This document shows positions 27,158 through 64,000 of a DNA stretch of 64,000 nucleotides, piece by piece. Below the pieces are notes generated by a model. The model saw only the letters and a program-made list of their open reading frames with translations. It had not been told where the DNA came from and did not search any database. Within the stretch, counting starts at the first letter, position 1, and every line of letters starts with the position of its first letter. The stretch is from NCBI GenBank assembly GCA_026874595.1, contig CM049307.1, positions 76,112,643-76,176,642 on the forward strand. Reading direction: 5' to 3'. The position numbers and the translations under genes were made by a program. This DNA is from Sipunculus nudus. Its lineage: Eukaryota; Annelida; Sipuncula; Golfingiida; Sipunculidae.

Positions 27158-27189
<32 letters not shown>

Positions 27190-35700: not shown

Positions 35701-38700
35701 ACCAACAGTGTGTATACTTTATTTGAAAAGATGTTTTTATTTTATCAAATGCACTGAATCTTTTATTTTATTTCGGTGAATAAAATTAAGCATGTACTGA
35801 AAACTCCAATGTGCAAAACGTTTTAATAGGGATTCAAGGAATAATTTTGTAGATGCCATGTTGTTATATATAAACTTTAATGCATTATTCCCTTGAAAGT
35901 GAAATGAAGGTATTAGTCCATTCTGTCCACTTGCCTGTCCATCTGCAAATTTTTCATATGCATCACAGTATCTCAAAACTTTTACTGTTTCTCTTCATGA
36001 CAGTCTTGTCAGAGTATTAGTTTGCATCATATATTGAGAACTTTACTATAACCAAGTAGGAGGGCCCTTTCCTCTTAGCTTCTCATATGCTTATATAAAT
36101 AAAAAACATTACAATAGAATATTTTTCATATTTTGCATTTGCAAAAATTTCAAACTTAAGCTGGTTGTCGTGACCCATGGGTCCTTTTTATATTCTGGAT
36201 TCTCAACATCATTGTTTGGCTAAAACTGAATAAATACCAGACATGGTGTGAATACTTGGCAAATGTATATGAATATGAATATGACTATGTACTCCATTAT
36301 AAAATTTCTTGCATAAGAATGGGAATTCAGGTAAAAATGAAAATATTTGAATACCAGTGCAAATACTTTCAAAATGTATTCATTAGTGCATTCATGAATA
36401 TATTCTATAATATTATTTTAATAATCATTTCAGTTATATTTTATTAAAAAAATCATAGGATTCTCTTATTATTTTTAAGAAAAATTATATTTGGCACAAT
36501 ATTTGTTATCAAATTTTAATAAATAGTTAAACTCTTTATCTTATATGTGCTGCTTATCAGTTATATGGCCAAGTCAAAATCTGTATGACAGTGGCACTCC
36601 ATTTGTTAATAAAATAAATGAAATCAGTGTCTTCCCTGTCTCCAAAGAAACTATCAAAATCATACATAAGCTTAACACTAACAACTCATAATACAGCTTA
36701 TATTTATTTCCACACAAAACCAGCATGTGCCTCATTTCAAAATCATATTTTTTTTATCTTATATAACAGCTGAGCGCCTTGACCCATAGGTCCCTTGTTT
36801 TAATCATGGCAATAGTCACATGTGGCACCTGTAAATCTTAGATGGGGCCGTGAGACATACAAGAGACAAAATTTGTTCGGCATTCAACGTGTCAACTAAA
36901 AAAAATAGAAATCGGCTTATTGGGTCGACTATAGACAGTAATTTTACTCTTCTGAAAATTAGAGGGGCATAATTTGCATTTGTATTCTGCGACACTTACT
37001 TACGCTAACATTTATGTACAACTATCGGCAATATTCGGAGGGAGTCCCATCTGTCATATTAATGGCTCATTTTTATGCACGCAACTGCAGTCGGCAATAT
37101 TCGGAATAAGTTCTATTTACATTCGCGTCCCCACGGTAATGCAAATGAGTATACATGGCCCTTGTCTTTTAAGCCAATAGGGAGCATAAGTCTCGTTTTA
37201 TCTCTGTTGAAATAAGGTTGAAAAAAGCCGTGCCTCGGTAGCTGTGGTTACGAACATTGGAACAAGTGTACCATCCTTGTCGTGTCAGAACTACCGCTTT
37301 GAGCGATAGAAATGTGGCATTTTAAATAATTTGAAGAAAAAATAAAATTTATATGATTGAAATGTGAAACTTGGCTTTAATAGAGACAGCTAATAAATGA
37401 TACATGTTTTGATATTATTGTCTCCTGCTTGCTTGGAATGGGGGACATTGTATGGGGTATGTCTGTCTGTCAGTTTGTCAGGTTTTCCTTGTGCGATAAC
37501 TTTCCTAAATATTATTATTATTTCTCCCAATTTGGGTCAGTGATTGCTCTCATGTTTACCTTGGTTGGGATTGGTTTTTGAGTGTCTGTCTCACAAGATA
37601 ATAATACATTATGATATGTAATTTTTCATATGATGAATCTGCACATTTAGTTTCACTAATCACCAACAGTTGTCGCTAGCGGGGGACATAAATTGATTGA
37701 ATTTGCTTGTTTTGGTACATTTCAAGGCCAGTGAGACCTTTTGGTGCTCCCGAGTCTATGACCAGTGGACCACCACCAGTAGACGGCATGGCTGAAATTA
37801 ATCGTCTGAAACAAGAGCTGTCACAGACTCAGGCTGACCTGCGAGCATATCAAGACAAAATGGCGTACATGGGTGACAAATATCAACGAGAGAACGAATA
37901 TCTGAAGGGAGAACGAGAGCGAGCCGTCATGGAGCTGGCGGCAACCAGAGAACGAACAAAGGTCAGGAAATCACGAAGTACCCGAGTTCAAGTCACAGAG
38001 AGGTCTCTTACTAAAGTGTCCTGCTTTCCAGACTCTTGCTGTGTAATTTTTTTGTCAGTTTTGTAGAAAAGGTATAATATTTATATCATGTGTGATAATA
38101 AAATTCTAAAAAAAAAGTCACAAATCTGATATTGACATTTTAAACTTGCTGCCCCAGGTCTCAAGTGAATTTTGCCATCTGTATATTGCTTGAAATACAC
38201 TTAGTAAGAAGCACTTTTATAAAAAATTGTTGTTTCTAATTTTGGTACATGATGACATACAGGTTTATGGACTAGAGTCTCTGATATATTATGATTATTT
38301 CAACCTGTTTTTCTGATACCAGTAATCTTAAGGCAAAGGTATTGTGGAATCGGGTGTGACCTAGTTGCAGTAACCGTTGTTTTGATCTTATTTTGCTGGT
38401 CATGAGTAAACGTGACTAATCTTTATTGCCATTATTAGGGCCGAGATGGCAGCAAATATGGATAACTAATACCTGACATAGAACACAGTACCATTAATGT
38501 ATGAACACTACAGTTTAAGTTAATATGCACAGATGAATAGACTTTCTTGCAGATTTTTCATGTGTACATGAAAGTATACAGAATTCAGTAACTAGCCTGA
38601 ACAGGTAATAAGATAGGATACTGCATGTGTCTTAAACAGATTATTAGGACTGATCATTGAATAAATAATAAACCTCATGTATTACAGTTAAGGGACCTGG

Positions 38701-41700
38701 TCATTAATTTTATAAGAAATCACATCAGTAGATATACTTTGTTACAACATTCCTTTCCATGTGAATTGTTACATTCTTTTAAATCCATTTCATTAGGCCA
38801 CTCCAAAGCAGCAGACATGAAATGACAAATGTGTATTTTATACCCAACAATGAATTTCATCATAAAGAAAATTTATTAAATGAACCATTTTGTCATTAAA
38901 GCCATGCAAATGACTTCATCACTACAATAGTTGCTCTGTTTTAAGAATAACCCTCCGGGTTGTGTCCTGACCATAGCTTTAGTCATCATAAAAAATAAGT
39001 TTTTTTAGTATTTAGTTTGTAATCGTCTCTTTGCAGGAACTGAATTAAATGAAGTATTACTTTCACTCCAGTTATAATTACACATTTTCCTGGTTCTGTC
39101 TTTGGGTTAAATTTAGGGCTTAAATACATGTCTAAAACAAATGTGGTATAGAGAGGCTAGGGGTTGCAGATTGGCATACTCTAGTACATATGCTACTTTT
39201 AGACCTAAACAATGACTTCAGTTATTTTAGTACTTAATTCTACATCTTTTTAGCGAACCTGTGAGCTTATGCGATGGTGCAGCGGCGTGCGTAGTGTGTC
39301 GTGCGTCGTCTGTAAGTTAACCATAGCTGTCTAAAAAACGGCAGGAGCTAGCATCACCAAATTTTTTGAAAACAATCAGTCATCCAAAAAACTATATCGG
39401 ATTTTGTTTATTTTTTTTGTAACTGCATTTTCTTAGATTTTATAGGGAAAAAGCTAAAAAAGCTTTAAAAATCTTCTTCTCCGAAACTGTCCAGCCAAAT
39501 TGTCCAATATTTTACAGAAATGATCCCTGGAAAATCTTTCTCAAGTTTGTTCGAATGGTTCCAGTTCGGAGATTTTTGGCCGAGTAACAGGAGGTTGAAC
39601 TTTGTTTACTGTGCAAAAAAGCATATTAAAATTTAAATCTCAGAAACGGCTGGAGCTATCATCACCAAATTTTATGCCAATGTTGGTCACGTAGGTCATA
39701 TCTGAAATTGAGGTATTGGTGGCGCCACCTGCATCGGCCTTTTTTGTACGGGGTCATCAGTGCCTGTATCACACTGAGGGCTACAAAAAACTTCTATTCT
39801 GAAACCATATGGCCAAAATGTTTAATATCGCACAGAAATGATCCTAGGGTACTGCTTTCTGAAGTTTGTTCAAATGGTCTCTTTTCAGTGACTTTTGGCT
39901 AAGTTATGGGAAGCTGAATTTAGTCATATGCTGTAACAGCCCAATCTAGCTCAGTGGCTACAAAGATCTTCTCCTCAAAAACCACTGGGGCAAATTCTTA
40001 AATCTCACACATTAATTATCCTTAGATGTTGATAATTCAAGTTTGTTCAAATGGTTTTGGTTCAGTAATTTTTGGCTGAGTTATGGGAAGCTTAACTTAG
40101 CCATTTTGCTGTATGAGTTATATATTCCCATATGAGTTATAAACCTGTAAAACGTTTTTTGACTGCCGCTACTGAGGCCAATTTGTTTAATATTTTACAA
40201 GAATAATCCCCTGAATAATTCTTATAATAATTGTCTTTTATGGTTACAAAGAATTAATTTTACCATATATTACAGCTGTGTGAAGCAGATACATCTAGAC
40301 TGGCACCAGTTTATCAGCATTTATTACATCATGCCTCTAGACATTTAGATTTCAGGTTATCTATGGTTAATATTGACAAGAATTTTTTTTAAAAGCTTTT
40401 AAAAAATGTAGATTTATGATATTTAGATATTCCTCATGCCAGGCAATGTTTACAATCACTGGTATACAGCTCTCTGTGGGTATATAAAGATGGCTGTACT
40501 GTGGGTATATAAAGACGGCTGTACATGGATTATAAATAATTAGTATCCATAGTCTTATTAATTTAACATTTTGCCATCAGTGAGATGTATCTGTATTACA
40601 ATTTTGCATTCAATATGCATCTGTAATATTTTTAAGGGAACCTGTGAGCTAATGCGATGGTGTGGCGGCGTTTGCTTTCTGTACGTTAACCAATACTATT
40701 TTGAAAATGATTGGAGCTAGCATCATGAAATTTAATGCAAAAAAATAGCCATCTCAAAAACTCTGCATTTTCTAAAATTTTATAGAGAAAAAGCTAAAAA
40801 AAACCTTTAAAAATCTCCTCCTCCAAAACACTCGAGGCAAATTGTTCAATATTTCACAGAAATAATCTTTTATACCATCTCCCTCAATTTTGTTCCAATG
40901 GTTCAAGTTTGGTGAATTTTGGCCGAGTTACAGGAAGTTGAACTTAGTCATCTGTCCAAAAAAGCATACTAAAATGACAGTCTCAGAAACGGCCGGAGCT
41001 ATCATCACCAAATTTTTTGCCAGTGTTGGTCACATGAGTCATATCTGAAATTGAGGTATTGGTGGCGCCACCTGCATTGACCTTTTTTGTACGGGGGTTA
41101 TTGATCATCTTTTATTATTCTAGATATTTTGATTAAAAGTTTATGAATATGTCGGCTTGAAAAAAAAATTTTAGCCAAAGTCTTTCAGTATGTGTAAACA
41201 GATATACCAACAGGCCAAGATTGAATCTGTACCTTTAAATAGGTTGAGAAACTGCCAACTGTTTCAGATTTGGCAACAGATCAAGAGTTCATACAGTGCA
41301 GCCAGATATAGGTCAAGAGTGTAATCAGTGCAGCCAAGCACAAGGCATGTGATCACTTCATGGGTGTCAAGCCCCTCATGGCAGGGACCCTGCATGAGCT
41401 TATGCAACAGTGTGGCTACTATTTCAGATTTGGCAACAGGCTAGAGGTCAGTCTGGATCTATTTATAGCTTTGGCAGACTGCCAACTGTATCAGATTAGG
41501 CAAAAGGTCAAGAGTTCACTCAGTGCAGCCAGGTATGGGTCAGGAGTTTACTCAGTGCAGTAGCTGCATTCTATTTATAGCTTTGGCAGACTGCCAACTG
41601 TGTCAGATTATGCAACAGGTCAAGAGTTCACTCAGTGCAGCCAAGTACAGGTCAAAAGTTCACTCAGTCTAGCCAGGTGCAGGTCATGAGTTCACTCAGT

Positions 41701-44700
41701 GCAGTAACCTGAGCAAGGAATTTGTCACAGTTCACTCGGGGCAACAGCCTTTCTCACCTAAGCCTGGTCAGCCCCATGCATCAGACTCAAGATAAGTTTG
41801 ATGTATTGGCCAAATATTTTGACCTGTCCATGTGTATTTGATTGCTTTCTCGCTCACAAGACAGGTGTCACCACCTACAATGACTTTTGCACAGTGTGTC
41901 CCTGCGTTTTTCTCAGAGGGGTTTGATATATCAGTCTGAAATTGGGCATATGTATATATCTCTGATAGCTTCGTTGTATACAAGACTGGTGGTGTCAGCT
42001 ACAATCTTTTTAGTGTTGTGTGCACCCATGCCAGAATTTCAGCAGTGATGTTTGTGTAATTGTTTCTTATTCAAAATGTTTAGTACTTGCATTGTTCATT
42101 TACATGAAAAGTAATGGTCCAGCATTGAAGCATTATACCTGGTGTATTTCCCAATGCACAGGTTCGCATTAGGCCTGTAGGCCTTGTTATATTTTTTGCA
42201 GGCTTTAGAAAATGACATCAACATCCTAAAAGATCAGCTGGCAGATGCAAACTTATCCCAAAAGGTAAGAAACACGGGTCATATTCATGACTTGAATAAC
42301 TTTTAGAGTAGGAAGTGGTAGCAAATTTTAACAGTTTGCAGTAAAGTTAAAAACCTTCCACTTGTTCACATTTTGTTTATTAATTGGCCATATTGTAGGA
42401 AAACTAGGAAATCACATTCAGTCATTGGAAGTAGAAACATAGAGTGGCTGAAAGATATTGTAGACTGCAACCATTCTGTTGGTCTCAATAAATCATAAAA
42501 GTGGAGATTTTAAAACTCAAAATGCCTTTTTAGAGATGAACAAAATTTTAAGCCTAAGAAATCCAAGTTATCAATATCTTTGTAATCTCTTTATTTTTAG
42601 ATTTACTGCAGTATATTTTGAGTTGTTCAGGTGTGCATAAAATGGTGGATATCACTATTCTGTTTCACTGGCTCTTTTAACATTTTAAATAGTAATGTCT
42701 GTAACCATAATAACTGATTCTTACAGTTTTTACTCCATTCAGATAATTCAGAGTCTGTGTTTTGTCTTTTATAGTTGGGAAAGTTACTTGTTAACCTGGA
42801 CCAGGTGAAGCTATTCAGGTAAGTTGATTATTAGTAATGTAACTTATATTTGTTTACAAAGTGGATGATGATATACAGGTGTATGGACTAGAGTCTCTGA
42901 TCTGATGTGATTAGTCAAGCCTGTAGTTCTGACACCTTTCATTGCAAATAAAATCAAAACAGAATGGACAAAGATCTGTTGGAAAATCTGTTGATATTAT
43001 ACATACACACAGTGAAACCTGTGTTATAAGACCACCCATGGGAATGGCCGTCTTAATCCACAGCTGGTCTTATTATTATAACCATAACCAGTGTGAATGA
43101 TTTTGGTTCACTCGGTGGTCTTAATAAACAGGTGGTCTTATTGGACAGTTGGTGTAAATTTCCACTGGCTGCTCAGAAAAAAAAGTAGAAAAACACTAGT
43201 ATCTTGCTTATTCGAAATTTATTGACACTCTATATAACTGTATCGTGCATTTTTAATGTTAGAAAGATGTTTTAATAATGTTTGTTCACTGATGGATAAA
43301 ACATATAACATGTGATCAGTTGTTGATCTAAGTTTTATTATGTGCAGGTCACAGTTTCCCACAAACACAGACACAAGGGATGTCATTGAAGAAAGTATAG
43401 CCTTGACCTCTGATGACCCCAAGAGAGTCAGCCTAGATGGCTTGGATGTTATTCAGAAGCTTGAGGCTGCTTTGGACTCATACAGACTAGCACAGGACAA
43501 CATTAAAACCTGTAGAGCAACGGTGAGTAACAGGGATATATATATACATATTAGTGGTAGGAATTTTTATTAAAATCATGTTTTGTTGATTGAAAGAAAT
43601 AAAATTGCCGATGATCAATTATTAATCAATCAATTTCTCTACCTTCTATACTACCTTTTAATCTGCTGTATAGAATTGCACATAAAATATTGCCAAGTGA
43701 ATTTAATCACACTGTAATCACACTGAAAGGTCAAGGTTACAGCCAGCTTGTTGAGACTTTTTCGAGGCACAAGATTCAGTTTTAATGCTGTTCCCTAAGT
43801 ACTTTGTATTCAGTCTTTTTTTATTCTCTGGCAGAATTAGAATATTTATTTGGTTATTTTTTGCATGTTAATATATAATGTAACCAATTTAATCGAGTAT
43901 GATTTAAAATGATCAATCATTGATCTAATTGATTAAATGGCACACCACTTATACCAAAAATACTGCCTAGAATTAGAGTTTGAAGATATGTTAGTGCCAT
44001 AGTTATACTTTATCTCACTATTTGTCCAAGTAGATGTCTAGTTCAGTATGACAATGAGGTTGAGAGGTTACATCACATGGCAACTGAATATGACAAGGTG
44101 TAATAATAGTGTAATATCAAGGTGATGTATTAGTTATTTGCCTGTTCTTTAAGGAGGAGTTGGTTGAGTTTGACCTATTATAGCATCAGTAATTGAATAT
44201 GCAGCACTTCAAGATAAAGGGTATAAGGTTAAGGGCTTACAAATTAACCCATTGTTTTTATTTGCCTTGGATGATGACATGCAGGTATTGGGACTAGAGT
44301 CTCTGAGCATACATGATTAGTCAAGCCTGTAGTTCTGACATTCATGTGGTCCTATGTCACTTTAACAATCTCCAGGAATGAGGATTATTGTTAAACTTTA
44401 GTAAAAAAAAAAAACCAGCAATGTCTTAACCTTATGATCAGCTCCTCCAGCCAATTAAAACATTATAATCAGCACATAATGCAGAGATGATCTTGTTGTT
44501 ATGTTCTTAGAATCAGAAAACTATTTATGGAAACTGAGCATTGTAGGGGAAAGTTGCTGATGATATTGACTTTCTTATATTAAAAATTGACAAGTTTATA
44601 CAAGGATCAATTTCATAAACTCAATAAAAATGCGATGTCAAGGACTGAGAAATTTAGTTTTCAGTTGCAAGAACTTATGGAATGTTTATGATTTTTTTGT

Positions 44701-53700: not shown

Positions 53701-56700
53701 CAAATCTTTGAACAATTAAGTGAATTTGCTTGAAAGTCATGAAATATCAGATAATGCAAATCTTGTCTGACAGTGTCAGAAAATCTTTTGTAAAATAAGA
53801 ACTTCATTCACCATGATATAAGTGTTATAAGTGTTATGTGTGAATCAAATCCTCAAATTTTTTTTGTATCTGGTCAATCATAACTTCTCGTGAATGATAC
53901 CATTTTAATAGGTCTGATAGGCATCTATTTCAGCTTTGAATTATTTATAAAAAAAAATAATTTTGATCTTTTCTGATTTATTATCATCAGTGGATAAAGA
54001 AGCACTGAGCCAACAGTTTTTTTTAGGAGCTTCTTTAATTTTCATTTTTTGAAATTGTATGAAATCTGCTCAGACCTGGTTTATTTTTATACGCCTATCT
54101 TATGACAGGAGTATTATGATTACCCACTGTCAATCCGTTAAATTTTTGGGAAACTCACCATAAGTACTAACCAACAGATCAACTCACCCAGTTCCATTAT
54201 GGGCAACGTCCATGCATATTTAATAAGCTCACAGGTCATTCCGCTATTTTCTGGTGTCACCGCAATAACTTACAAAGAAAATTAAGAATTTTGATAAAAC
54301 TTATCAGAAATGTTAATCAATAAAATATCTCACCTAAGTTTGAGTTCCAGCGAAATCCCTGCGTTTTTAATGAGGTCAGAGGTCACTGCACTTTTGAGGC
54401 ACATGGTGACATACGAAAAATCCTATGGATTTTCATGAAACTCATTATACATATTTACCAATGGACTTTCTCACCTGATTTACATTCTCATCAAAATTCA
54501 CGCATTTTTAATTAGGTTAGAGGGTACCGCACTTAGGAGGTACCGTGGTGATTTAACAAAAATCCTATAGATGTTCATGAAACTCATTATACATATTAAC
54601 CAACAGAGTTTCTCACCTGAATTACATTCTCATTAAAAGTCTGCATATTTAATGAGGTCAGAGGTCACCAGATACATGACAAACATATTATGCACGTTTG
54701 CAGTGCTCTTGTTATTTAACTGTTCCCTTGTCCAGTAGATGAAGCATGCATTTCCCAAACAAATACCTCTATTGATCCAAAGGACACGTTTTTATAACCT
54801 CTGTTATATCAGTGTTTATCAAACGTCTTTACTCACGTTTGACGGTATTCACTTATAATGAAAACCATTAAATTAGGTTGTGCGTTATTAGTTTAACCCT
54901 TATAGATCATGTATATCTACCAATAATGAAAATGAGCAAATTAAATATGTGATGTCATATGTGATAAAAATATGTGATTGTTTGTGGGTTTTAAAATCCT
55001 ATATTAAGACACACACATTCTAAGTTCTCTAAGATAAGCAAGTTTCCATGGAAGTGGTGATTTTTCCATGGAGATGTATGTTTCCAGATGGGTGCTATTG
55101 AAGACAGTTTCCAAGGCCATTGGCAAGAGTCTATGGTAGGTAGAGCCTTGGTGTTCCCTCACCTTGGAAATGTTATGTCGATGTTGTGTGGTGACTTGGT
55201 ATCATCTATAACTGAGTAGAACCTAGCTGCAGTGCTTTTTTTAAGCATCTGAATGAGGGTTTTTTGCCTTGTTTACTTTTACCTGCATTGAATGGCATTC
55301 TTAATGCAGCTTTCATGGGTGTCTCTATTAAAGAATGCTGCCTGTAGATGACTGGGGGTTCAGGAATGCTTTTAAGTTCTGATGTGTTTATGAATTATGA
55401 TACAATATAATACTCCTGCCATGGTTGCATACAGCAGTTCATCAGACGCCAAATTAAACAGCCTAGAATGGGAAATAGGACCACATTTAATGTTAACCCT
55501 GGACACTCAATATTTTGGCATACTTTCTCATTGCAGTTACATGGTAGTATGATATTGATATGCTTGACATGTTATGCAAAAGTCAGCAATACCCAAATTT
55601 TCCAAATAATTTTTCTGTGACAGCAAATTATTTTATATGCCAGGCTTTCAGGAACATGGAGGGGGGGGGGGGGGGGGTTAAGCAGTTCTGACACTTGAAA
55701 TCTCATTCAGATGCTCAGTTCCATATGTCTGAGCATGCGATCTGACAGCCAATTTGTATCAATCTTGAATCAATCAGTTACCATTGCTGACAGCCTCAGT
55801 CAAACAAGTAAAAAAATTACCCTGTCAACCGTAAATGCCCCCTAACATTACACCATGACCAAATAGTTACACAGTGATATGATATATATTATACAAATGT
55901 CATAGCCTACTAAAAACTGATTAAATATTACTTAACCCTTAAAAGATTTACACTGATATCGACCCCTTGGATGCTCCAAAATCCCCCTTCATCCTTTGAA
56001 ATTTTGGCCTGAGCATCCTGTGCACTCTCATCAATTTTTATACCTGATAACTGCTTTGGTATGATAAAATGATCAGCATTCCAGATTGGTAAAGTGGGTT
56101 CTGAAATTGCTGCACCAGTGTCAGTGAAATTTCTGTGTACCTTTACTTTCACTTGTGTTTTTACTGTTGATTTATATACAGCAGGCTGTTTGAGGGTAGC
56201 AGAGGAAATTACAGCAGATCTGCAATATATGCATCTTTATGAAGTATTTCCCTATGCAAGTAATGGCCCTTGGAGCCCTATCAGAAAATGATTGCTTTTC
56301 ATCCAGACAGGTCTTTCTGTAATCTTTAATACCTGTATTTAGATCACTGTTACATATATTGTGCAGGTTACATGGTAAAAACTTGATTTTTATAGCCTTT
56401 GAAAGTCAAGTTTTTAAGGCTGTTGAATGAAGATTTAACAAGGATCACAAAAGTGAAATGTTTAATGTTTACACCTTAATCTTTGTCATTATGCAAAATC
56501 TGACCAAATTAGCCAAACCAGTCTTTTGAAAAAGTCACCAACAGATCTGATATTTTTGTTATAATAATTTTAGTTAAATAATGCAAAAGTTCAAATTTTT
56601 AAATTACTCAAAACACAAAAGAAGTTGTAATTGCAAGTGTGAAGTACAAATAAACTGTATAACAGCAAAGCAATCAATAAACTTTTAAAATAAATAAAGT

Positions 56701-59700
56701 TCAGATATCTTGTATCTTCAGATAGACAACCTTCACAGAATGATCTGTTCCTCATATATTTACAAATTCTGGGGTATGAGAACATTATAGAGTAACTGTA
56801 CACAAGAACAAGATGAGGAACTTTGAAAACTACTATTGATTTCTACAAGGATTGTAACAGGAGTAAATGGACTGTCACATGAACCATAGAATTGATGATT
56901 AACATCAATGAAACTTGATCAGTCGGTTTAAAAATATTCACAAAATGCAATTTAAAATATTTCTTCATTTTAAAAATCAACTCTTATGGTTGAAGTATCT
57001 ATGACTGTTCTCAGATTGCATTGGAATGCACTGTTTCACATGCTTTATTTGTTTTTTCGCTGAGACATGCCCAAGGACTACATTCAACATATACCTAGCC
57101 CATTCTGCATGTTTTGCATGGGCCTTCACACCTAGTTAGACCAATACTCTAGTATTCACTAAAGTTGGCATCTCTGTGCATGTCATACTACGTTTCATAC
57201 TAACAATTTTCAATCCAAGTTAATCTAAGATTTATACTAACAAGTATCAATACAAATTATATCTTAGAATTATACTAACAGCTTTCAATAAGTTAGATCT
57301 AAGATTTATACTATCAGTCCAAGTTGAATCTACATTTCTTAGACTAAGAAAACTGCTTAAATATAGTGATGTTACTACTTTGACACAGGCTTTCATTTTG
57401 AGAAGTATGGACTTTCCTAAGTGCTCATATACATTCTGTTATTACCTTGTTATGTCTGTTTGTCTGTTTGTTAAGATTTGGTGTCACAGCAATAACCTTA
57501 AGGAATTTGAAGGGTTTACATGAAACTAAGTATCAATATTCATTAATTAAGTATCACACTTCAGGTTTATTCTTGCAAACCTATACATATTTGACAAGGT
57601 GAGAGGCCATTGCCCATTGGAAAGACCATTTTTGTTGTGCCACTGTGATAACCTTCATGATATTAAGGTGGTCATGTTATGGGAGTAGTCATTGAGTGAG
57701 GTTTACTCTACATCTTTTAGTTAGTTTATATAAAAAAAAATACCTTTGTGCACAAGTATCAGTTGATAATTGTACAGTAATAGCTGTGGTCACAGGGTTT
57801 TGTTAGTTGAATTTTCATAATTTTCACCTTTTAAGTTCATTTTGCAATGTGGGTTCCATTATTCACAACCTCAGAGGAACCTACATTTTTGTATATTATG
57901 GTATTTGATCATAGGACTATTTTCCATAATTTTTAATATATATGCCAAATTTTTGATTATTTCTTGAGGACCCAAGGAAACATCCAACATCATTGACAGA
58001 TTATATAAAACATCTGATATAATTAATGATTTGTAATATTTATCTTCAGTTTAAAGGTACCATAAAAGACTTTTAACATCCGTCTTTAGTGAGCACACTG
58101 TGCATGGCCTGTGAGGCTACTGTATAAATGAGTGGTATCCCGTGTTTATGGGATGTCTTATTCTTTTATGTTTCATTTTCACATTAATTTCCTTTTTTAA
58201 AACTGGCTAATTTTAAACTGTCACAAACACATAAACAACCACAATTTCTATAGTCTGGTAAGGTTTTATTTGAGGTTTGTTGTCTTTAAGTATAATTCAG
58301 GTCAATGCTCATACAGGTTCGCGCTGATTGTGATGATTGTCGATGTCTTGTAGGAGAGGAGTTCAGATTGCACTACAGTGGCAGCTGTTGTTCATTTCTT
58401 GATGCGTACCCTTCGTTCAGAACTGAAGGACATCCATTACCTCAAACATCAGCTGGTTGAGTACAGAGATCTGTGGATGCAGCTCAAACCCTGGTTGTCG
58501 GAAAAACCCGATGTTGCACAAGTCCAGAGCATACGCAAAAACATCAAAGCTCTCAAGTCAAAGCTCAGGCATCGTCTTGCAGATAAGCAAGACTTGGAAG
58601 AGGTTAGTACAAGTGAGACTGCATTAATGCAATATAGTTGTGTTTATTCAGTTTTTGATAGTGCATATTAAGTGTTGATTTCAGCTACATTTTCACCTAG
58701 TTGAGAATTTCTGAGTTGAGAATTTCATTAATATTATCTTATCATGATCTAAATATGCAATACATTTGGTATTTTGATGACCTTTTGCTCTTTCATATTG
58801 AAATTTTAGTTGACCTTTGACCTGTATATGATGATATACAGGTGAACGGACTAGAGTCGCTGAAGTCTGTGCTGAACAAAGCCTGTTTGTCTGATGCTTA
58901 TTTAAAGCATGACTGTGGTAGTCAATCTAATGAGCTTCTGTCTGCCAAGTTCTTGGTTCGTTAATAGCTTTTGAATACATATGCTCTAATCAAGCACACT
59001 ATATAAATCTTAAATTCTAGCTGTTTCACATAAGGTTTTGTGAGACGGCATGCAGCGGGTTATGTAATTTTGATAACAAGTAGTCATGAGCACATTTACT
59101 GCTCCACAAAAACATGTTTATAGTATACAGTCTGTAGCTTAGGGTTATATTGGCTGTTTTCTTGAGGACTTATATAGCAGTTTGTCATGGTTACAGGGAG
59201 AGTCAGAGGATGAAGATGCTTTGAAGAATGTCAACAAAGAGCTGGCTGAGATTCGTCAGCAGCTGCAAACTGCATTTATACAAGATGACCAGTGCTTGGT
59301 GAGTAATGACAATTCTATATGAGCTGGAACCAGTCTACTCAGCTTTGATGCATGACAGATAGACCATAAACCTGTAATTTTCTGTCTGTACGGCTTTCTA
59401 CAGTCGTAGTCCTTGTGTTGATGGTTGATTAGCTTAAGTAAAATGTGTTGTACAATCATGAATCAGTTATCTCCACTCAACTGAAACTTTTTTAATTTTT
59501 TATAGGCTTTTATAAGTTTTTTTTTCTGGACTTGGGTATAATGTATTGGAAGAGTAATAGAAAATCAGTTGATCATTAACAATTGATAATAGTATACATT
59601 TTAATATAAAACAGACAGCCTTTTCATATTAAACTTCAGATATTTGTTTATGTAAGTAAAAAATATCAGAGCAGTTTTAGGTACTGTTTCATTCTGAAAG

Positions 59701-62700
59701 TACTGTGAGTACTAAAATCCTGATGTGATGCATGTGTACGATCCATAAAAAAACAGCATAGGATTGAGTGTGTCTTTCTTTGGTTAATGGTGACATTGAT
59801 GTTGTTTATTTTCAGTCTGAGCTGGCAGACCTACATGACAACCATTTCCCTGAACTCTCACTTTTACATCCTGATCTGTCTATTGAAGTAGAAGGGGTGA
59901 GTAATCAGCTATACTTAATGTACCAAGTTGTCATTAGGCCAAAAAATAAAAAAGGTATGGTTCTCAGGCTCTTTTACCAGAAATCACTGCGGGCGTTCGG
60001 TATTTAATTTTTTACCTTTTTTTATATGTTTCAATAAAAATATCATATGATCAGGGAAAAGCATGAAATTAACAGGTTTTTTTGCTAAACAGGTAAAAGC
60101 ACAACATAAAATAGGAAATCTTATAAAAATTGATTTATTTATCTTTTTGAAAGATAAAAATTAAAATTAAATGTTTGATGGGGGGGGGGGGGTTTAAAAT
60201 TGACTCAGGCAGTGCCTGAGAACCCTACCTTTTATTTTTTTTGGGCCTTACCATAAGTCATTTTCTGGTGGCCTTAGGAACAAAATATTTATAGTGTATT
60301 CTAAAAATAGTCCAAAATTAATATTAAAAAAAAAATATTTGAAAGTTTTTGGCTTATTATATATGAAAAACCAAAATACCTTCCTGACTTGGACTTATTT
60401 TTGTATGAGCAGAGTAAGACATTTCAGATTCTGCTTGGTTATGTTGACTGCTGAATGTTTACATACGATAGTTTGTGACAAAACACACATGATGACATAC
60501 AGGTATTGTGGACTAGAGTCGCTGATCTCTGTGATTATTAATACCTGAATTCCTGATGCTGTGTGTGTGTTGTAAATACTATAAATTTTTTATTTACATG
60601 TAAATGACCTCATAAATTGTGAAGTAGGTTAATAAGTAATTATGTCACTTGTGCTGAAATACATTATGACTTCTTCTGGCATTGGGTTATATTTATTGTG
60701 ATATCCATTAAATTTACAATAATAATATCTGAAATGTTTGCTTCTTATTACACTTTCTCATAGTAGTCTTTTTGACAGTGCAAAAGTAAATGAAAGAAAA
60801 GTCATTTACAACTGTACTGTTACTCTTTCCTCTTTAGATCTAATGATTAAGAAATTGAGAGTAATAATGTACCAGTTCGTTCACTGTATTTTACCAGGAG
60901 ACACGTGGGTTACTGAAATCCGGCCGAGCTTTGGATCAGTTTGACTTGGTACCGATGGCCGGGAAGAAATCTGTGATGACATCCATTCACTGCGGCAGAC
61001 CTGTTATTATCAAGGTCAGTCCATGGTCACAGCAAGCAGTTAATGTCAGTAGCCTGAAAATGTCATTATAAGACAGAGCTCATGTTAAGGTTTCAAACAC
61101 ATTGACTTTACAGTTTTGAAAACCCTTATGTTTCTACTTAAGTCTGTGTGATGGGTTTAAGTGTAGCATTTACTTTTATGTTGGAATAATTCTTTTTAAT
61201 ATATCATCATTTGGATATTTGTGTCAGTCAGATATTTACATGACTTGTAACTGGATCAAAATTACAGGGAAATTTATGTGTAACTTGTATATATTCAGCT
61301 CTGTTTGTCTGATTCATAATAACTTGTGTGACAAAGTGCATCATTCATGTGTGACCAAATTGAATGTGTTTGTTAAAACAGTTGAATGCTCAAAAATTAA
61401 GTGGATGATAGCAAAGTAATTATTCAAGTTTTAATCATCAGATTTATAGTCAGATTATTGTGCCTTAAAGTTGATTCCTTCAGAAAAGTGTGGATTCAAA
61501 TTTAAAATCTGAAATTCAAATCCATGTCCTTATATACACAGTTGGCATATGATGACAGACAGGTATATTGGACTAGAGTCGCTGATCTCTGTGATGATTA
61601 ATGCCTGAACTCCTGATGCCATGTATTCAGTTAAATATTTTCATAACTGTATAAAACAATACCTTTAGCATTAAAATGAGTTTTCTGACATCTTGACTTC
61701 AGTAAATAAGGATTTGTTCAGATTCAGGGTGTTTTCTTGCTAATGTTAACCTTTAAATAATTGATTCTGTACCTTTTGGTTTGTTACATAGATAAATTTG
61801 GAATATAATAATCTGATGAATATAAAAAATGTCATTGGGGATCACAAGAGGGTGCTGATGAACAATTTAAGGTGTCTGTAAATATGTTATATTTAATATC
61901 CACTTATTCTTTGTCCTGTTCTGTAAGTGCCCTGCATGACATCTGAAGCCGGTGTATTAATGGTCCTGTCCTATTCCAGGAGTTCATTGTTGATGAGAGT
62001 GTTGGAGTTAAAAAGAATGAGTTTATTCAACGAGCTGTGGCTTACAACAGCATCACCCACCCGAATGTTCTGCCGCTGGAGGCCATCTTCTTTGACAAGG
62101 TCAGATGATATACTATGGTCAAGGTCATGTTGTAATATAAAATTCAAGAAACTGAGTCTGTTTATCCCATCCATATAGTGCCGTTACAAATATATTACCA
62201 ATGGATATGTGAAGGTTATGTTATTAATTTGTTTACACAAATGTTTAGGTATATTGTAAAGTTCATCTCAGCAACATTTATGAAAGTAGACAGAATTTCA
62301 TGATTGTTTGCAATAACTGAATCAAGAAATGAATTGAAGGCAACAGTTGATAGTCAAATTGAATGGTTGATCCCTCAGTAATTTACAGACTCGCATCTTG
62401 GGGAAGGTAGTTTTGATACAGTATTGATTGTAGGCTGGCAGATCACTTTTAGAGCATATGATGACATACAGGTTAACGGACTAGAGTCGCTGATTTCTGT
62501 GCTGAGCAAAGCCTGTTTTTCTGATGCTTAATTCATCTTGATGAATTGAGGGTGCTCTTGGATGGTTTTGTTTAATAAATGGGTATTTTATTTTGGAACA
62601 CAAGACAACAATAAATAGGAATATGAATTATTTTGGTTGTAAATTCTCAATTTCTAAATTGTGAAGCCAGAAGCAAACACAAAAAGAAAATATGTTGGTT

Positions 62701-63461
62701 TTTCATTTTGGAGCATGAAATGACAAAAAGATTGAAAATAAATGCTGATTGTAAATTCTTTTATTCTTAGAACTAAGCAAAAATATATGCACAAAGCAAA
62801 TGAGCAAATCTGTTTTGTGGAGTTCCAATGTGAAAAAATGTGAAGAGCTGATTGTATATAACAGTATTAATGTATATTATAAAAACAAACTTGTCCTTTT
62901 CTAATAAATATGTTATTTTGAAGGAATAACCTACTTTATAAGAGCTTTATACATGAGAAGATGAATATTATACCAGATTAGATTTTAAGATTCTGTAAAA
63001 TAATGTTTGCAAATTTCAGCAGTGTTCACATAGAAAAGGAAGTATGGATACAGCAAAGTCTTGATTGTTGGGTTTACAAGCAGTGTCTGAATATAGGTAT
63101 TTTTATATAGATTTAATTTTAATATACACTGTGAGGATAGAATGAGTAAAGGACATTTTATATATGAAATGCCATATATATGTATCAGTGTTCATCGCTG
63201 ATGAAACCTTATAAGACATCACATTCTGTTGCTCTTACTATATCTTTAACCTTATCTGTGTGAACATTGATAGTCTCCAAATGCACAAAGGTCTTTATAA
63301 ATCTGTTGGGGCTGTTTCTGCAGCCATGGCCCTGTCAGTGTTTTACTCAGTTTAAAGTCTGAGAAACTTTGTTTCAGGGGGAGAAACATGCATATGTCAT
63401 GATGTCAAAACAGGAAGTCAACCTGGAAACCATGGCAACCACATCAAGGATGTCAGACCAG
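19705..63461 (+). CDS. STK31: STK31/TDRD8 orthologue: RRM-Tudor-coiled coil-kinase-like protein, partial
   Basis: Germline Tudor-kinase protein; vertebrate STK31 is testis-enriched and linked to the piRNA/nuage machinery. Twenty-four coding exons with GT-AG borders and compatible phases encode, in order: an RRM (exons 1-3; RNP2 LYVGNL, RNP1 VGFVRYL), an extended Tudor domain (exons 5-7; AWYRCRV and VQYIDFGN), a Pro/Gln-rich linker (exon 9), a coiled coil (exons 10-12), helical regions (13-20), the [11 protein letters not shown] motif (21) and the kinase N-lobe (22-24). From memory, human STK31 shares FWAQ...SEVCPQ, IYGGLFSEDQCWYRCKVLK, LAQENIKTC, SIKKTLKSLKA and FPELPLLHPE with this protein, which makes orthology very likely. 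The start ATG at 19705 precedes MSSSFGG and lies just before the RRM. The kinase C-lobe lies beyond the window. Ten introns carry C/D-box snoRNAs. Confidence 0.93.
19792..23949. other. STK31 intron 1
   Basis: A 4.2-kb intron with a C run (about 19850-19866), a fold-back MITE (20511-20989), a G run (about 21886-21902) and, at about 23085-23640, a reverse-oriented block of the GGTGGCGCCACC module family (CATCTTGTACTCAAGACTGG, AAACCAGACAGGTGGCGCC). No additional exon was recognised. Confidence 0.6.
20511..20989. mobile_element. Fold-back MITE with 9-bp target duplication (Mutator-like)
   Basis: Identical 9-bp direct repeats TTTCAGATC (20502-20510 and 20990-20998) flank a 479-bp element. Its ends TAGACCTAGTTGTGGCTCTG and (inverted) TAGACCCAGTTGTGGCTCTG continue as an inverted repeat for about 60 bp. 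Inner segments also pair (GGTGA..CCGGGGTGATTG with CAATCACCCCGGCTCACC, and GCAGTGTGCA with TGCACACTGC), so nearly the whole element folds on itself. A 9-bp duplication with long inverted repeats is the hallmark of Mutator-like elements. No coding capacity. Confidence 0.8.
23950..24038 (+). CDS. STK31: STK31 exon 2: RRM middle
   Basis: Encodes [20 protein letters not shown] and following residues. This is the alpha-1/beta-2 part of the RRM (FSSFG-I). It ends two bases into the Gly codon of VGF. Confidence 0.88.
24818..24919 (+). CDS. STK31: STK31 exon 3: RNP1 and RRM end
   Basis: Encodes [17 protein letters not shown]...[11 protein letters not shown]. With the split Gly codon it forms the RNP1-like VGFVRYL and the beta-4 strand RLFVKR. 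Confidence 0.88.
25367..25484 (+). CDS. STK31: STK31 exon 4: linker
   Basis: Encodes a Gly/Pro-rich linker, [19 protein letters not shown] onward, between the RRM and Tudor parts. Ends IKK, phase 0. Confidence 0.85.
26755..26913 (+). CDS. STK31: STK31 exon 5: N-terminal part of extended Tudor
   Basis: 53 codons, phase 0 at both ends. [10 protein letters not shown] and [12 protein letters not shown] match the start of the STK31 extended Tudor region (FWAQ, SEVCPQ). Confidence 0.92.
27431..27505 (+). CDS. STK31: STK31 exon 6: Tudor core strands 1-2
   Basis: 25 codons, [20 protein letters not shown] and a short tail. The WYR aromatic and the G-x-x-F/Y strands form the Tudor barrel. Human STK31 has nearly the same segment. 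Confidence 0.93.
27506..31228. other. STK31 intron 6
   Basis: A 3.7-kb intron, most of it a long TTTTTAGCTCAG-family element (27679-30321). The remaining ~0.9 kb is AT-rich without recognisable features. Confidence 0.6.
27679..30321 (+). mobile_element. Mollusc repeat TTTTTAGCTCAG, long copy
   Basis: It starts TTTTTAGCTCAGCTGACTAT, passes a (GTCC)n tract (about 27733-27780) and ends CAGCTGAGCGTCGTGACCC then TAGGTCCCTTGTTTT. CTCAGCTG and CAGCTGAG form short inverted ends. The interior holds two tandem modules (about 27.82-28.45 and 28.50-29.10 kb) sharing AAATTCGGCATA, AGATGTCYCCAA and CACTTCARGACTGCCTAATA. The unique tail (29.69-30.32 kb) is nearly the same as in the intron-9 copy. No transposase frame was seen, so it is likely non-autonomous. 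Confidence 0.65.
31229..31393 (+). CDS. STK31: STK31 exon 7: Tudor core strands 3-5
   Basis: 55 codons with [13 protein letters not shown] (the YIDFGN Tudor signature that ends the aromatic cage) and IVELPQTL, then the start of the outer SN-like part of the extended Tudor. Confidence 0.93.
32090..32260 (-). repeat. 5S-rRNA-like segment (SINE3-type or 5S pseudogene)
   Basis: On the minus strand TTAGTTAAGTTTAAACG (32199-32183) and TTTTTGGATGGGTGACCGCG (32171-32152) follow the order and spacing of 5S rRNA (AAGTTAAGC ... TACTTGGATGGGTGACCGC), including the internal promoter boxes A and C. The sequence after the box departs from the 5S 3' end, as in SINEs whose head is 5S-derived. Too diverged to be a working 5S gene. 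The outer limits are approximate. Confidence 0.65.
32633..32738. repeat. TA/TG microsatellite with ~24-bp period
   Basis: TA runs are broken by a TG about every 24 bases, giving a higher-order repeat. Reading frames here are Tyr-Ile artefacts. Confidence 0.95.
32853..33050 (+). CDS. STK31: STK31 exon 8: end of extended Tudor
   Basis: 66 codons, [20 protein letters not shown] onward, ending ERFIQNQ. The [20 protein letters not shown] part matches the SN-like strands after the Tudor core, followed by a basic tail. Confidence 0.9.
33735..33928 (+). CDS. STK31: STK31 exon 9: Pro/Gln-rich linker
   Basis: Encodes [17 protein letters not shown] and a [19 protein letters not shown] tail. Low-complexity linker ending with AT of a Met codon completed by exon 10. 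Confidence 0.88.
33929..37726. other. STK31 intron 9
   Basis: A 3.8-kb intron dominated by a second TTTTTAGCTCAG element (34541-36801). It also holds a C run (about 35393-35410) and, at about 37420-37690, a segment bounded by GGGGGACA phrases that looks like another old repeat. Confidence 0.55.
34541..36801 (+). mobile_element. Mollusc repeat TTTTTAGCTCAG, second copy
   Basis: Same orientation, start and end as the intron-6 copy, and a near-identical tail (36.18-36.80 kb versus 29.69-30.32 kb). It carries one interior module where the other copy has two, which explains most of the length difference (2.26 versus 2.64 kb). Confidence 0.65.
37727..37961 (+). CDS. STK31: STK31 exon 10: coiled coil 1
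   Basis: Encodes [11 protein letters not shown], then a heptad-rich helix ([20 protein letters not shown] ... [20 protein letters not shown]). A clear coiled coil, as in the middle of STK31. Phase 0 donor after AACAAAG. Confidence 0.9.
38243..38321 (+). ncRNA. C/D-box snoRNA copy 1 (intron 10)
   Basis: C box ATGATGA (38249-38255), guide GGACTAGAGTCT, D' CTGA (38281-38284), D box CTGA (38313-38316). The terminal stem TGGTA (38243-38247) pairs with TACCA (38317-38321). The second guide differs from the other copies. Confidence 0.78.
39253..40180 (+). repeat. GAACCTGTGAGCT element, copy 1
   Basis: It starts TTTTTAGCGAACCTGTGAGC with GCGATGGTGCAGCGGCGT. The interior has three modules with CCAAATTGTCCAATATTTTA-like and GTTATGGGAAGCT phrases. 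GGTGGCGCCACC is at 39718-39729. Confidence 0.5.
40634..41110 (+). repeat. GAACCTGTGAGCT element, copy 2
   Basis: Same head (GGGAACCTGTGAGCTAATGC) and the same GGTGGCGCCACCTGCAT phrase (41061) as the upstream copy, in the same orientation, 1.4 kb away. Shorter. Confidence 0.5.
41278..41730. repeat. Degenerate minisatellite
   Basis: Units of about 30 bp built on GGTCAAGAGTTCACTCAGTG and CAGCCAGGTA, embedded in a longer ~110-bp unit with GCAGACTGCCAACTGT. Roughly seven to eight units, diverged. Confidence 0.75.
42202..42264 (+). CDS. STK31: STK31 exon 11: coiled coil
   Basis: 21 codons ([20 protein letters not shown] plus K), phase 0 both ends, heptad pattern continuing from exon 10. Confidence 0.88.
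42265..42774. other. STK31 intron 11
   Basis: A 510-bp AT-rich intron. Unlike its neighbours it has no snoRNA copy or other feature. Confidence 0.7.
42775..42818 (+). CDS. STK31: STK31 exon 12
   Basis: A 44-bp exon encoding [14 protein letters not shown], ending two bases into an Arg codon completed by exon 13 (LFRSQF). Confidence 0.85.
42858..42940 (+). ncRNA. C/D-box snoRNA copy 2 (intron 12)
   Basis: C box ATGATGA (42865-42871), guide GGACTAGAGTCT, D' CTGA (42897-42900), C'-like GTGATTA, D box CTGA (42929-42932). Flanks AAAGTG and CACCTTT can pair with a bulge. It starts only ~40 nt after the 5' splice site. Sub-family with copies 3 and 4 (shared TTAGTCAAGCCTGTAGTT). Confidence 0.82.
43010..43167. 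mobile_element. MITE with CAGTG termini
   Basis: Begins CAGTGAAACCTGTGTTATAA and ends TTTCCACTG. AAGACCACC and GGTGGTCTTA pair inside as inverted repeats. About 158 bp, resembling pogo/Tc1-type MITEs with CAGTGRAA ends. It shares intron 12 with a snoRNA. Confidence 0.6.
43348..43522 (+). CDS. STK31: STK31 exon 13
   Basis: Encodes [18 protein letters not shown], then [20 protein letters not shown] and [11 protein letters not shown]. The LAQDNIKTC motif matches LAQENIKTC of human STK31. Confidence 0.92.
44266..44345 (+). ncRNA. C/D-box snoRNA copy 3 (intron 13)
   Basis: C box ATGATGA (44271-44277), guide GGACTAGAGTCT, D' CTGA (44303-44306), D box CTGA (44335-44338). The 3' half is nearly the same as in copies 2 and 4. 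The terminal stem is weak, so it may be the least stable of this sub-family. Confidence 0.75.
44805..44927 (+). CDS. STK31: STK31 exon 14
   Basis: 41 codons, [20 protein letters not shown] onward, ending ARCADIE. Amphipathic helices; phase 0. Confidence 0.9.
48968..49454. mobile_element. DNA-transposon-like block with GGCCC ends
   Basis: The left end TTAAAGGCCCTAGTGAGCAA and the right end GTGTGACTGGGCCCTAAG are imperfect inverted repeats sharing GGCCC and AGT. The interior repeats CAACTTG and TTGTGACC words in both orientations. No coding capacity. Borders are tentative. Confidence 0.45.
50096..50176 (+). ncRNA. C/D-box snoRNA copy 4 (intron 14)
   Basis: C box ATGATGA (50103-50109), guide GGACTAGAGTCT, D' CTGA (50135-50138), C'-like GTGATTA, D box CTGA (50167-50170). 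Terminal stem AGTG (50098-50101) with CACT (50171-50174). Confidence 0.82.
50556..50660 (+). CDS. STK31: STK31 exon 15
   Basis: 35 codons: [20 protein letters not shown] onward to LYKDWK. The DWK end aligns with the KKFYDWK segment of human STK31. Confidence 0.9.
51137..51224 (+). ncRNA. C/D-box snoRNA copy 5 (intron 15)
   Basis: C box GTGATGA (51147-51153), D' CTGA (51179-51182), D box CTGA (51211-51214). The best terminal stem of the set: GCTGTATGT (51137-51145) pairs over 9 bp, with two G-U pairs, with GCATGCAGC (51216-51224). The guide reads GGACTAGATTCG, one change inside the rRNA-pairing core, so it may be retargeted or decaying. Confidence 0.72.
51790..51879 (+). CDS. STK31: STK31 exon 16
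   Basis: 30 codons, [20 protein letters not shown] onward to LQQLQQ. Helical, phase 0. Confidence 0.9.
52318..52434 (+). CDS. STK31: STK31 exon 17
   Basis: 39 codons starting [20 protein letters not shown] and ending EIEITDM before gtgagc. Corresponds to the LSVEGS...ILEKTESSVCKELEIAL region of human STK31. Confidence 0.9.
52435..55087. other. STK31 intron 17
   Basis: A 2.65-kb intron without a snoRNA copy. At about 54085-54670 there are four degenerate modules of ~130 bp with AATGAGGTCAGAGGTCACC, CATGAAACTCATTATACATA and TTTCTCACCTGA. Otherwise nothing recognised. Confidence 0.55.
55088..55135 (+). CDS. STK31: STK31 exon 18: micro-exon
   Basis: A 48-bp exon, [16 protein letters not shown], between a tttccag acceptor and a gtaggt donor. 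Phase 0 at both sides fits exons 17 and 19. Supported by frame, splice sites and position rather than by similarity. It could be alternatively included. Confidence 0.6.
55136..58353. other. STK31 intron 18
   Basis: A 3.2-kb intron with a G run (about 55661-55678) and a minor module fragment (57.45-57.70 kb) related to the intron-17 modules. No snoRNA copy. A 75-codon minus-strand open frame at 55928-56152 is unrecognised. Confidence 0.55.
58354..58602 (+). CDS. STK31: STK31 exon 19
   Basis: 83 codons starting [20 protein letters not shown]. It includes [12 protein letters not shown] and [19 protein letters not shown], matching KKQLIEYL and LLSIKKTLKSLKALLRWKL of human STK31. Confidence 0.93.
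58822..58902 (+). ncRNA. C/D-box snoRNA copy 6 (intron 19)
   Basis: C box ATGATGA (58828-58834), guide CGGACTAGAGTCG, D' CTGA (58860-58863), C'-like GTGCTGA, D box CTGA (58891-58894). The 3' half (CAAAGCCTGTTTGTCTGATG) is shared with copy 9. The terminal stem is weak. Confidence 0.78.
59197..59298 (+). CDS. STK31: STK31 exon 20
   Basis: 34 codons: [20 protein letters not shown] onward, ending DDQCL. An acidic patch, then a helix, as in the EESDDPDGSQIEKIKEEI region of the human protein. Confidence 0.9.
59816..59896 (+). CDS. STK31: STK31 exon 21
   Basis: 27 codons: [20 protein letters not shown] onward. The [11 protein letters not shown] motif is nearly the same as FPELPLLHPEI just before the kinase domain of human STK31. 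Confidence 0.93.
60483..60567 (+). ncRNA. C/D-box snoRNA copy 7 (intron 21)
   Basis: C box ATGATGA (60489-60495), guide GGACTAGAGTCG, D' CTGA (60522-60525), D box CTGA (60553-60556). ACACAC before and GTGTGT after can close a stem. An internal pairing CAGGTATT with AATACCTG is perfect. Sub-family with copies 8 and 10. Confidence 0.8.
60898..61014 (+). CDS. STK31: STK31 exon 22: kinase N-lobe start
   Basis: 39 codons: [20 protein letters not shown] onward to [11 protein letters not shown] supplies the beta-3 lysine. The usual GxGxxG loop is not visible upstream of it, in line with the degenerate kinase fold of this family. Confidence 0.9.
61543..61621 (+). ncRNA. C/D-box snoRNA copy 8 (intron 22)
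   Basis: C box ATGATGA (61549-61555), guide GGACTAGAGTCG, D' CTGA (61582-61585), a perfect C' box GTGATGA, D box CTGA (61613-61616). Terminal stem TGGCA (61543-61547) with TGCCA (61617-61621). The most canonical copy. Confidence 0.87.
61980..62099 (+). CDS. STK31: STK31 exon 23: kinase helix C region
   Basis: 40 codons: [20 protein letters not shown] onward, with [16 protein letters not shown], the typical H-P-N-(I/V)-L step after helix C. Confidence 0.92.
62452..62529 (+). ncRNA. C/D-box snoRNA copy 9 (intron 23)
   Basis: C box ATGATGA (62458-62464), guide CGGACTAGAGTCG, D' CTGA (62490-62493), C'-like GTGCTGA, D box CTGA (62521-62524). Terminal stem AGCA (62453-62456) with TGCT (62525-62528). 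Confidence 0.83.
62530..63377. other. Remainder of STK31 intron 23
   Basis: About 850 bp of AT-rich sequence between snoRNA copy 9 and exon 24. Nothing recognised. Confidence 0.6.
63378..63461 (+). CDS. STK31: STK31 exon 24: kinase hinge region
   Basis: 28 codons: [20 protein letters not shown] onward to [12 protein letters not shown] aligns with the strand before the hinge (AYLMVPYY in the human protein). Last coding exon in the window; the catalytic loop lies outside. Confidence 0.88.
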
Positions 63462-63675
63462 GTATGAATAAGTATCCAGATTCTAGTAAATACAAGTCAG
63501 TTTATACGGTCCTTATAGACAGTAACAGAGGATTAAAATACATGAATGTTTCTTTTTTATGTATCAAAGAATATAAACTGTTTAATCCACTGAATCTGCT
63601 TTTATCCCTCTGTTTGTTATTTAACAGTTATCTCACAAATGTTGGTACATTTTGATATAATTATGATCCTTACTT

Positions 63676-63839
63676 ATATTGTTACAAAGAAAAATAAATG
63701 AGGGGAAAATCCTGGGCCGATCTGGGATTCGAACCCAGGTCGGTGGCGTTCAAGTCTGGCGTACCAACCATTTCGCTAGAAAAGCAAGCTTCACTAGCAA
63801 GACAGTCCGGTCTGCTTTTATGTCACCCCGTTACAATAT
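63676..63839 (-). repeat. tRNA-like SINE (short)
   Basis: On the minus strand it carries a perfect B box GGTTCGAATCC inside a 5-bp T-stem (CTGGG/CCCAG, 63738-63722) and an A-box-like TAGCGAAATGG. Acceptor and anticodon stems do not form, so it is not a working tRNA gene. A direct repeat GTTACAA (63681-63687 and 63830-63836) could be the target duplication. The same ends also read as an imperfect inverted repeat ATATTGTTAC/GTTACAATAT. Confidence 0.6.
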
Positions 63840-63925
63840 ATAGACTATCCATGAATCTGACTGCATACTAATTGAGTCATGCACACACATTCATTTGCTT
63901 TCCTATGCATACACACACACACACA

Positions 63926-64000
63926 TGGCATATGATGACATACAGGTATATGGACTAGAGTCGCTGATCTCTGTGCTGAGTAATACCTGCTATCCTGATG
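63926..64000 (+). ncRNA. C/D-box snoRNA copy 10 (intron 24), cut by window edge
   Basis: C box ATGATGA (63932-63938), guide GGACTAGAGTCG, D' CTGA (63964-63967), C'-like GTGCTGA, D box CTGA (63995-63998). TGGCA at 63926-63930 awaits a TGCCA partner just past the edge. An (AC)n run lies directly upstream. Confidence 0.8.

What the first reader, a model, noticed from the sequence alone, without database searches (positions are those of the whole stretch)
38243..64000. Ten intronic C/D-box snoRNAs of one family inside an STK31 gene
Seen directly: a ~70-80 nt sequence recurs ten times, always on the sense strand, one per intron, in introns 10, 12, 13, 14, 15, 19, 21, 22, 23 and 24, and never in an exon. 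Each copy has a C box, D' and D boxes with fixed spacing (C to D' ~31, D' to D ~31-32) and a C'-like box. Several terminal stems differ in sequence but keep pairing (TGGTA/TACCA, AGTG/CACT, TGGCA/TGCCA, a 9-bp stem in copy 5), which argues for selected RNA structure. Known: intron-nested C/D snoRNAs guide 2'-O-methylation, and their hosts are usually ribosomal or translation genes. A germline Tudor-kinase gene hosting an amplified guide family is, as far as I know, undescribed. It would tie snoRNA dose to germline transcription.
Basis: partly seen in the sequence, partly recalled or inferred. Interest (0 to 1): 0.93.

Follow-up and report, generated by a model that had tools for sequence, protein, structure and literature searches.

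The report
SNORD52-like guide RNAs in STK31 introns
Twelve near-copies of one small RNA, whose guide is the same as that of a human RNA that marks a ribosome site, sit one per intron in a gene related to a germ-cell gene, which raises the testable idea that the germ line makes its own supply.

Summary
Ten sense-strand ~80-nt copies lie in the window, one per intron of a Tudor + kinase (STK31-type) gene; the downstream genome adds two more in that gene (12). Two further copies lie about 160 kb away in introns of a SAR1 GTPase gene, same strand. An exact genome-wide pattern scan (1.43 Gb) found 13 matches, all on this contig and strand; this is not a dispersed repeat. D' and D boxes are intact in 14 of 14 copies, the C box in 13. 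Terminal stems differ yet pair better with their own partner than by shuffling (P 0.006), though not every covariation measure is raised. The family is identifiable: GACTAGAGTC beside D' is the guide of SNORD52, which serves Um3904/3925 of human 28S rRNA. SNORD52 is the best Rfam match for several copies but below Rfam's cut-off (30 vs 45 bits), so I call them SNORD52-type, not filed members. Multi-copy C/D families in one host gene are known; twelve copies of a human singleton in a germline-type protein gene are the unusual part. Germline dosing is untested, and the SAR1 copies argue against exclusivity. No expression data and no rDNA of this animal were available.

The parts
38243..38323 (+). 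snoRNA copy c01 (best SNORD52-model score, 30.2 bits)
42859..42939 (+). snoRNA copy c02
44265..44345 (+). snoRNA copy c03
50097..50177 (+). snoRNA copy c04
51141..51221 (+). snoRNA copy c05, among the most divergent; one change inside the guide (GGACTAGATTC)
58822..58901 (+). snoRNA copy c06
60483..60563 (+). snoRNA copy c07
61543..61623 (+). snoRNA copy c08 (C' box exact, GTGATGA)
62452..62531 (+). snoRNA copy c09
63926..64000 (+). snoRNA copy c10, cut by the window end (continues 5 bases beyond); c11 and c12 follow at window-equivalent 65171 and 65992 (L012:2171-2250, 2992-3072)
26755..27505 (+). host gene, Tudor exons (26755-26913, 27431-27505; continues at 31229-31393)
31229..31393 (+). 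host gene, end of Tudor domain
37727..59896 (+). host gene, middle exons between which c01-c06 lie (for example 37727-37961, 43348-43522, 44805-44927, 50556-50660, 52318-52434, 58354-58602, 59197-59298, 59816-59896)
   Evidence: own splice model
60898..63461 (+). host gene, first kinase-domain exons (60898-61014, 61980-62099, 63378-63461); the domain continues downstream of the window

Best explanation
These are intron-encoded box C/D snoRNAs with the SNORD52 guide. Shown from sequence: C, D', C', D boxes, a terminal stem that tends to be kept by compensatory change, an almost unchanged 11-nt guide upstream of D' (one base between), one copy per intron of a Tudor-kinase gene, sense strand. Inferred: each is released from the spliced-out intron, bound by the C/D proteins, and directs fibrillarin to 2'-O-methylate the 28S rRNA uridine in GAC(U)CUAGUC, the equivalent of human Um3904/3925 (helix 73). 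The family probably spread inside the host gene by local duplication or gene conversion and may have reached SAR1 from there. The stretch before D varies between copies, so it is probably a single-guide RNA.
Against: No Rfam family reaches its gathering score (SNORD52 best 30.2 of 45). The genome-wide SNORD52 hits are weak in themselves (best E 0.094), and the same search also gives sub-threshold hits in all 14 prokaryote control genomes; only the coincidence with this family is telling. Two of five covariation measures are not raised: pairs with double change 5 vs 4.1 (174 of 500) and further pair types 10 vs 11.4 (465 of 500), and the +3 slide has 13 types. RNAalifold's own consensus leaves the terminal stem unpaired, with a covariation term of 0.03. 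No expression data. The animal's own 28S was not found (empty; 41, 77, 78 not answered). c05 has a guide change and c11 a C-box change. Distances to the next exon are 295-3879, not the ~70 nt I recall as usual in mammals.
Confidence: 0.87

Rival explanations
1. The copies are mostly dead: one or two (for example in SAR1) supply the RNA, and most STK31 copies are drifting duplicates that survive by chance.
For: c05 has a guide change and distances of 0.28-0.42 to the other copies; c11 has a C-box change; c03 and c07 have short stems in one count. [quoted passage not shown]
Against: 13 of 14 copies keep the guide exactly and 14 of 14 keep D' and D while other positions and most flanks differ widely.
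Confidence: 0.2
2. The STK31 copies no longer serve rRNA methylation mainly, but act in cis on splicing or level of their host, or on another RNA.
For: One copy per intron in 12 of 15 introns considered. A conserved inner pairing CAGGT/GCCTG that is not in the SNORD52 model is unexplained.
Against: Among the most constrained stretches is the rRNA guide, in the same register to D' as SNORD52; a cis role would not need it.
Confidence: 0.08
3. A transposable or dispersed repeat that resembles a snoRNA.
For: Most pairs share only about the ~80-nt unit, with unrelated flanks, as mobile copies would.
Against: 13 of 13 exact pattern matches lie on one contig and strand, in two genes; BLAST with c02 and c12 found only the same two clusters (5 of 5 and 8 of 8 hits), though neither listed c05 or c06, so divergent copies are missed; no target-site duplication signal (own flanks 5.14 vs 5.07 for swapped flanks).
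Confidence: 0.02

Closest known systems
[not shown]
   Same: Identical GACUAGAGUC guide, next base U and D' box in c01-c04; C and D boxes; length class.
   Different: About seven extra bases after the C box and an inner CAGGT/GCCTG pairing; G instead of U before D' in c05-c12 and both SAR1 copies; score below the gathering cut-off. Human SNORD52 is described as a highly expressed singleton (PMC8178906, discussion section read).
Multi-copy C/D families within one host gene by cis-duplication
   Same: Paralogues in different introns of one host gene, described for human (PMC8178906, abstract and discussion) and vertebrates in a chicken study (PMC2653536, passages).
   Different: Twelve copies of one rRNA guide in a Tudor-kinase gene. 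SNORD115/116 arrays are large too, but (recalled) in non-coding hosts and without rRNA targets.
Constrained-drift model of snoRNA location, including hosts with complementary expression (PMC3511168, abstract and passages)
   Same: Predicts migration between hosts as long as total expression suffices.
   Different: That study found hosts to be broadly expressed; STK31 in mouse is germ-cell specific (PMC3929691, abstract and passages).
Maternal- versus somatic-type snoRNAs in zebrafish (Pagano et al. 2020 preprint, seen only as a citation in PMC11075544)
   Same: A germline/soma division of snoRNA supply is conceivable here too.
   Different: Nothing about expression was measured here.

Membership tests
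Box C/D snoRNA | C box RUGAUGA and D box CUGA near the ends | tested here: met
   D 14 of 14, C 13 of 14 exact
Box C/D snoRNA | Internal D' and C' boxes | tested here: met
   D' CTGA 14 of 14; C' within 2 changes of RTGATGA in 14 of 14, exact in c08
Box C/D snoRNA | Terminal stem closing the C/D motif | tested here: met
   75.7% of cells paired, 4 of 5 pairs with double changes; own-partner test P 0.006. Against: 2 bp only in c03 and c07, and two of five measures not above shuffles
Box C/D snoRNA | Complementarity to rRNA next to D or D', with a methylated base at the fifth position | tested here: inconclusive
   Same guide and register as SNORD52, whose human target is Um3925(3904); own 28S not found
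Box C/D snoRNA | Stable RNA bound by the C/D core proteins | not testable with these tools
   needs RNA data
SNORD52 (RF00276) | Rfam gathering score of 45 bits | tested here: not met
   best 30.2 bits
SNORD52 (RF00276) | Guide GACUAGAGUC adjoining D' | tested here: met
   13 of 14 copies exact
STK31 (host) | N-terminal Tudor and C-terminal kinase domain in one protein | tested here: met
   TUDOR E 1.2e-21, Pkinase E 1.3e-15 on the joined exons; architecture of mouse STK31 in PMC3929691
STK31 (host) | Orthology by protein tree | not tested
   no eukaryote protein collection was at hand

The most novel reading that the evidence does not exclude
This animal has split the supply of one rRNA guide: the germ line (and the egg's stored ribosomes) gets its helix-73 methylation from a 12-copy array driven by the STK31 promoter, while other tissues rely on the two SAR1 copies. 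Methylation of that site, scored below full in human cells, would then be set by germline identity.
Probability: 0.25. Interest if true: 0.75.

Novelty: new variant of a known kind. Interest (0 to 1): 0.55.

Why it matters
A guide that is single-copy in human (PMC8178906) has at least 14 copies here, and most sit in a gene that, if it behaves as in mouse, is on only in germ cells. That goes against the finding that snoRNA hosts are broadly expressed (PMC3511168) and gives a concrete system for asking whether copy number and host choice set the level of one rRNA methylation in germ line and soma. PMC8178906 argues the other way for human, that copy number does not serve total abundance, so the question is open. 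The variable bases let many copies' output be told apart.

Tried and rejected
Rejected: a dispersed repeat; retroposition with target-site duplications. Rfam at gathering threshold gave nothing, so the relaxed threshold was used. Duplication mode stays open: c11 and c12 share about 200 nt including flanks (77% identity), a DNA-level copy, while c02 and c04 (95% over the unit) share no flank; gene order and similarity correlate modestly (Mantel r 0.30, p 0.02). In a 15-row tree (14 copies and the SNORD52 consensus) most nodes are weak; c05-c12, d1 and d2 group at 95, which hints that the U form (c01-c04) is older and that the SAR1 copies derive from the STK31 set, but the outgroup branch is very long and its 5' end is badly aligned.

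The 28S target in this genome could not be found: a 30-mer pattern typed from recall, a 91-mer typed from recall and a looser pattern were empty; the tool itself says that an empty answer without a positive control shows nothing. The LSU family search gave no usable answer or did not complete, and one more pattern did not complete.

Predicted exons at 39254, 41385 and 55088, and four upstream of 26755, came out of the splice model but were dropped as doubtful before the protein was joined. The first, stricter splice run missed several exons and was superseded. 14-row alignments with misplaced d1/d2 limits were replaced.

Full report
What is there. Ten copies of an ~80-nt unit lie on the + strand of the window between 38243 and 64000. 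The genome continues past the window: two more copies follow at window-equivalent 65171 and 65992, so the gene has twelve (c01-c12). A scan of the whole 1.43-Gb assembly for CAGGTNNNN(N)GGACTAGAGTCKCTGA gave 13 matches, all on the + strand of contig C2, none for the reversed control pattern: 11 of these twelve (c05 has one change and escapes the pattern) and two more, d1 and d2, about 160 kb downstream. BLAST with c02 and with c12 found only places in these two clusters, 5 of 5 and 8 of 8 hits; neither listed c05 or c06, so divergent copies elsewhere could be missed, and the tool calls its counts lower bounds.

Hosts. A simple splice model built here places the twelve copies in twelve different introns. 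Joined exons (988 aa, incomplete, seven doubtful exons dropped) match Pfam TUDOR (E 1.2e-21) and Pkinase (E 1.3e-15) in one protein, the architecture of mouse STK31 (PMC3929691, passages). The catalytic loop reads HGSVHPGN and the DFG site YDF, so it may be a pseudokinase (motif reading from recall). Random placement of twelve points by intron length lands in twelve different introns in a fraction 5.5e-5 of 200,000 draws. d1 and d2 lie between exons of a gene whose five exon peptides, set end to end, match SAR1 structures (best E 5.1e-89): d1 between exons ending at 20416 and starting at 21690, d2 between 21794 and 22601 of a stretch that starts at C2:76316000.

Anatomy. Over 14 aligned copies D' and D are invariant, RTGATGA is exact in 13, C' is recognisable in 14, and the 11-nt guide is exact in 13. 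Invariant columns: guide 10 of 11, D' and D 8 of 8, C box 5 of 7, inner CAGGT/GCCTG 8 of 10, the rest 5 of 46. Terminal stem: 4 of 5 pairs have double changes and 75.7% of cells pair. For terminal stem and inner helix together, double-change cells (14 vs 7.1), covariation score (0.281 vs 0.197) and cells paired (85.7 vs 79.4%) exceed shuffles, but pairs with double change (5 vs 4.1, 174 of 500) and pair types (10 vs 11.4, 465 of 500) do not; these last two are the measures that the tool says relatedness inflates least. RNAalifold's consensus omits the terminal stem. An alignment-free test, made after these, compares each copy's longest own stem with stems from shuffled partners: sum 64 vs 48.9, P 0.006; c05 has 9 bp, c03 and c07 2. 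So stem conservation is supported, not overwhelming. The inner helix CAGGT(A)/(U)GCCTG pairs in 94% of cells, but three of its six pairs never vary and one has a double change (A-U to U-A), so it is suggested, not proven.

How it likely works. Inferred steps: co-transcription with the host; splicing and debranching; trimming to the terminal stem; C/D protein assembly; pairing of GGACUAGAGUC with 28S GACUCUAGUC; methylation of the U opposite the fifth base upstream of D'. The animal's own 28S was not found, so this pairing is not shown here; the 28S motif is recalled.

Origin. Most pairs share only about the unit itself; c11 and c12 share about 200 nt. No target-site duplication signal. Similarity falls with gene-order distance (Mantel r 0.30, p 0.02). 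Local duplication, perhaps with gene conversion, fits better than retroposition, in line with cis-duplication of C/D paralogues.

Against the known. Five papers hold both snoRNA and STK31, each term once or twice, with other subjects by title and abstract start. Of 20 papers with SNORD52 and 28S two were opened, and no title is about such an array. Searches on mollusc or bivalve snoRNAs (13 of 13 and 15 of 62 listed), on invertebrate host genes (20 of 41) and on snoRNA paralogues in one host (10 of 10) show none by title. They cover open-licence papers only. Hosts of old snoRNAs are broadly expressed (PMC3511168), while STK31 is germ-cell specific in mouse. Zebrafish maternal ribosomes have their own 2'-O-methylation pattern, and a preprint on maternal- and somatic-type snoRNAs is cited there (PMC11075544 passages; a search for open papers listed two, not opened). 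That makes a split of supply between STK31 and SAR1 plausible. [quoted passage not shown] It remains a hypothesis.

Noticed in passing
G000 C2:76337256-76337333 and 76338167-76338246 (L048, L049): Two further copies in introns of a SAR1 GTPase gene on the same strand, about 160 kb from the STK31-type gene.
   Followed up: yes
L041 (G000 C8:45818964-45819024): A weak SNORD52 hit (23.7 bits) with CAGACTAGAGTTTCTGA, one base off the SNORD52 guide plus D', near a possible splice acceptor; perhaps a decayed canonical SNORD52 or chance.
   Followed up: partly
all copies, after the C box and before the D box (for example 60500-60507 with 60540-60547): A conserved inner pairing CAGGT/GCCTG absent from the SNORD52 model; its role (structure or extra rRNA contact) is unknown.
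   Followed up: partly
window 39300-41100: An interspersed repeat; of 2223 candidate places for its 40000-40300 piece the 40 scored lie on many contigs, mostly 85-94% identical.
   Followed up: no
window 12891-14336, - strand: A 481-aa open frame with a helicase-like stretch (PRRCGKTVMASH, DECHHAYGS), perhaps a neighbouring RIG-I/Dicer-type helicase gene; named by eye only.
   Followed up: no
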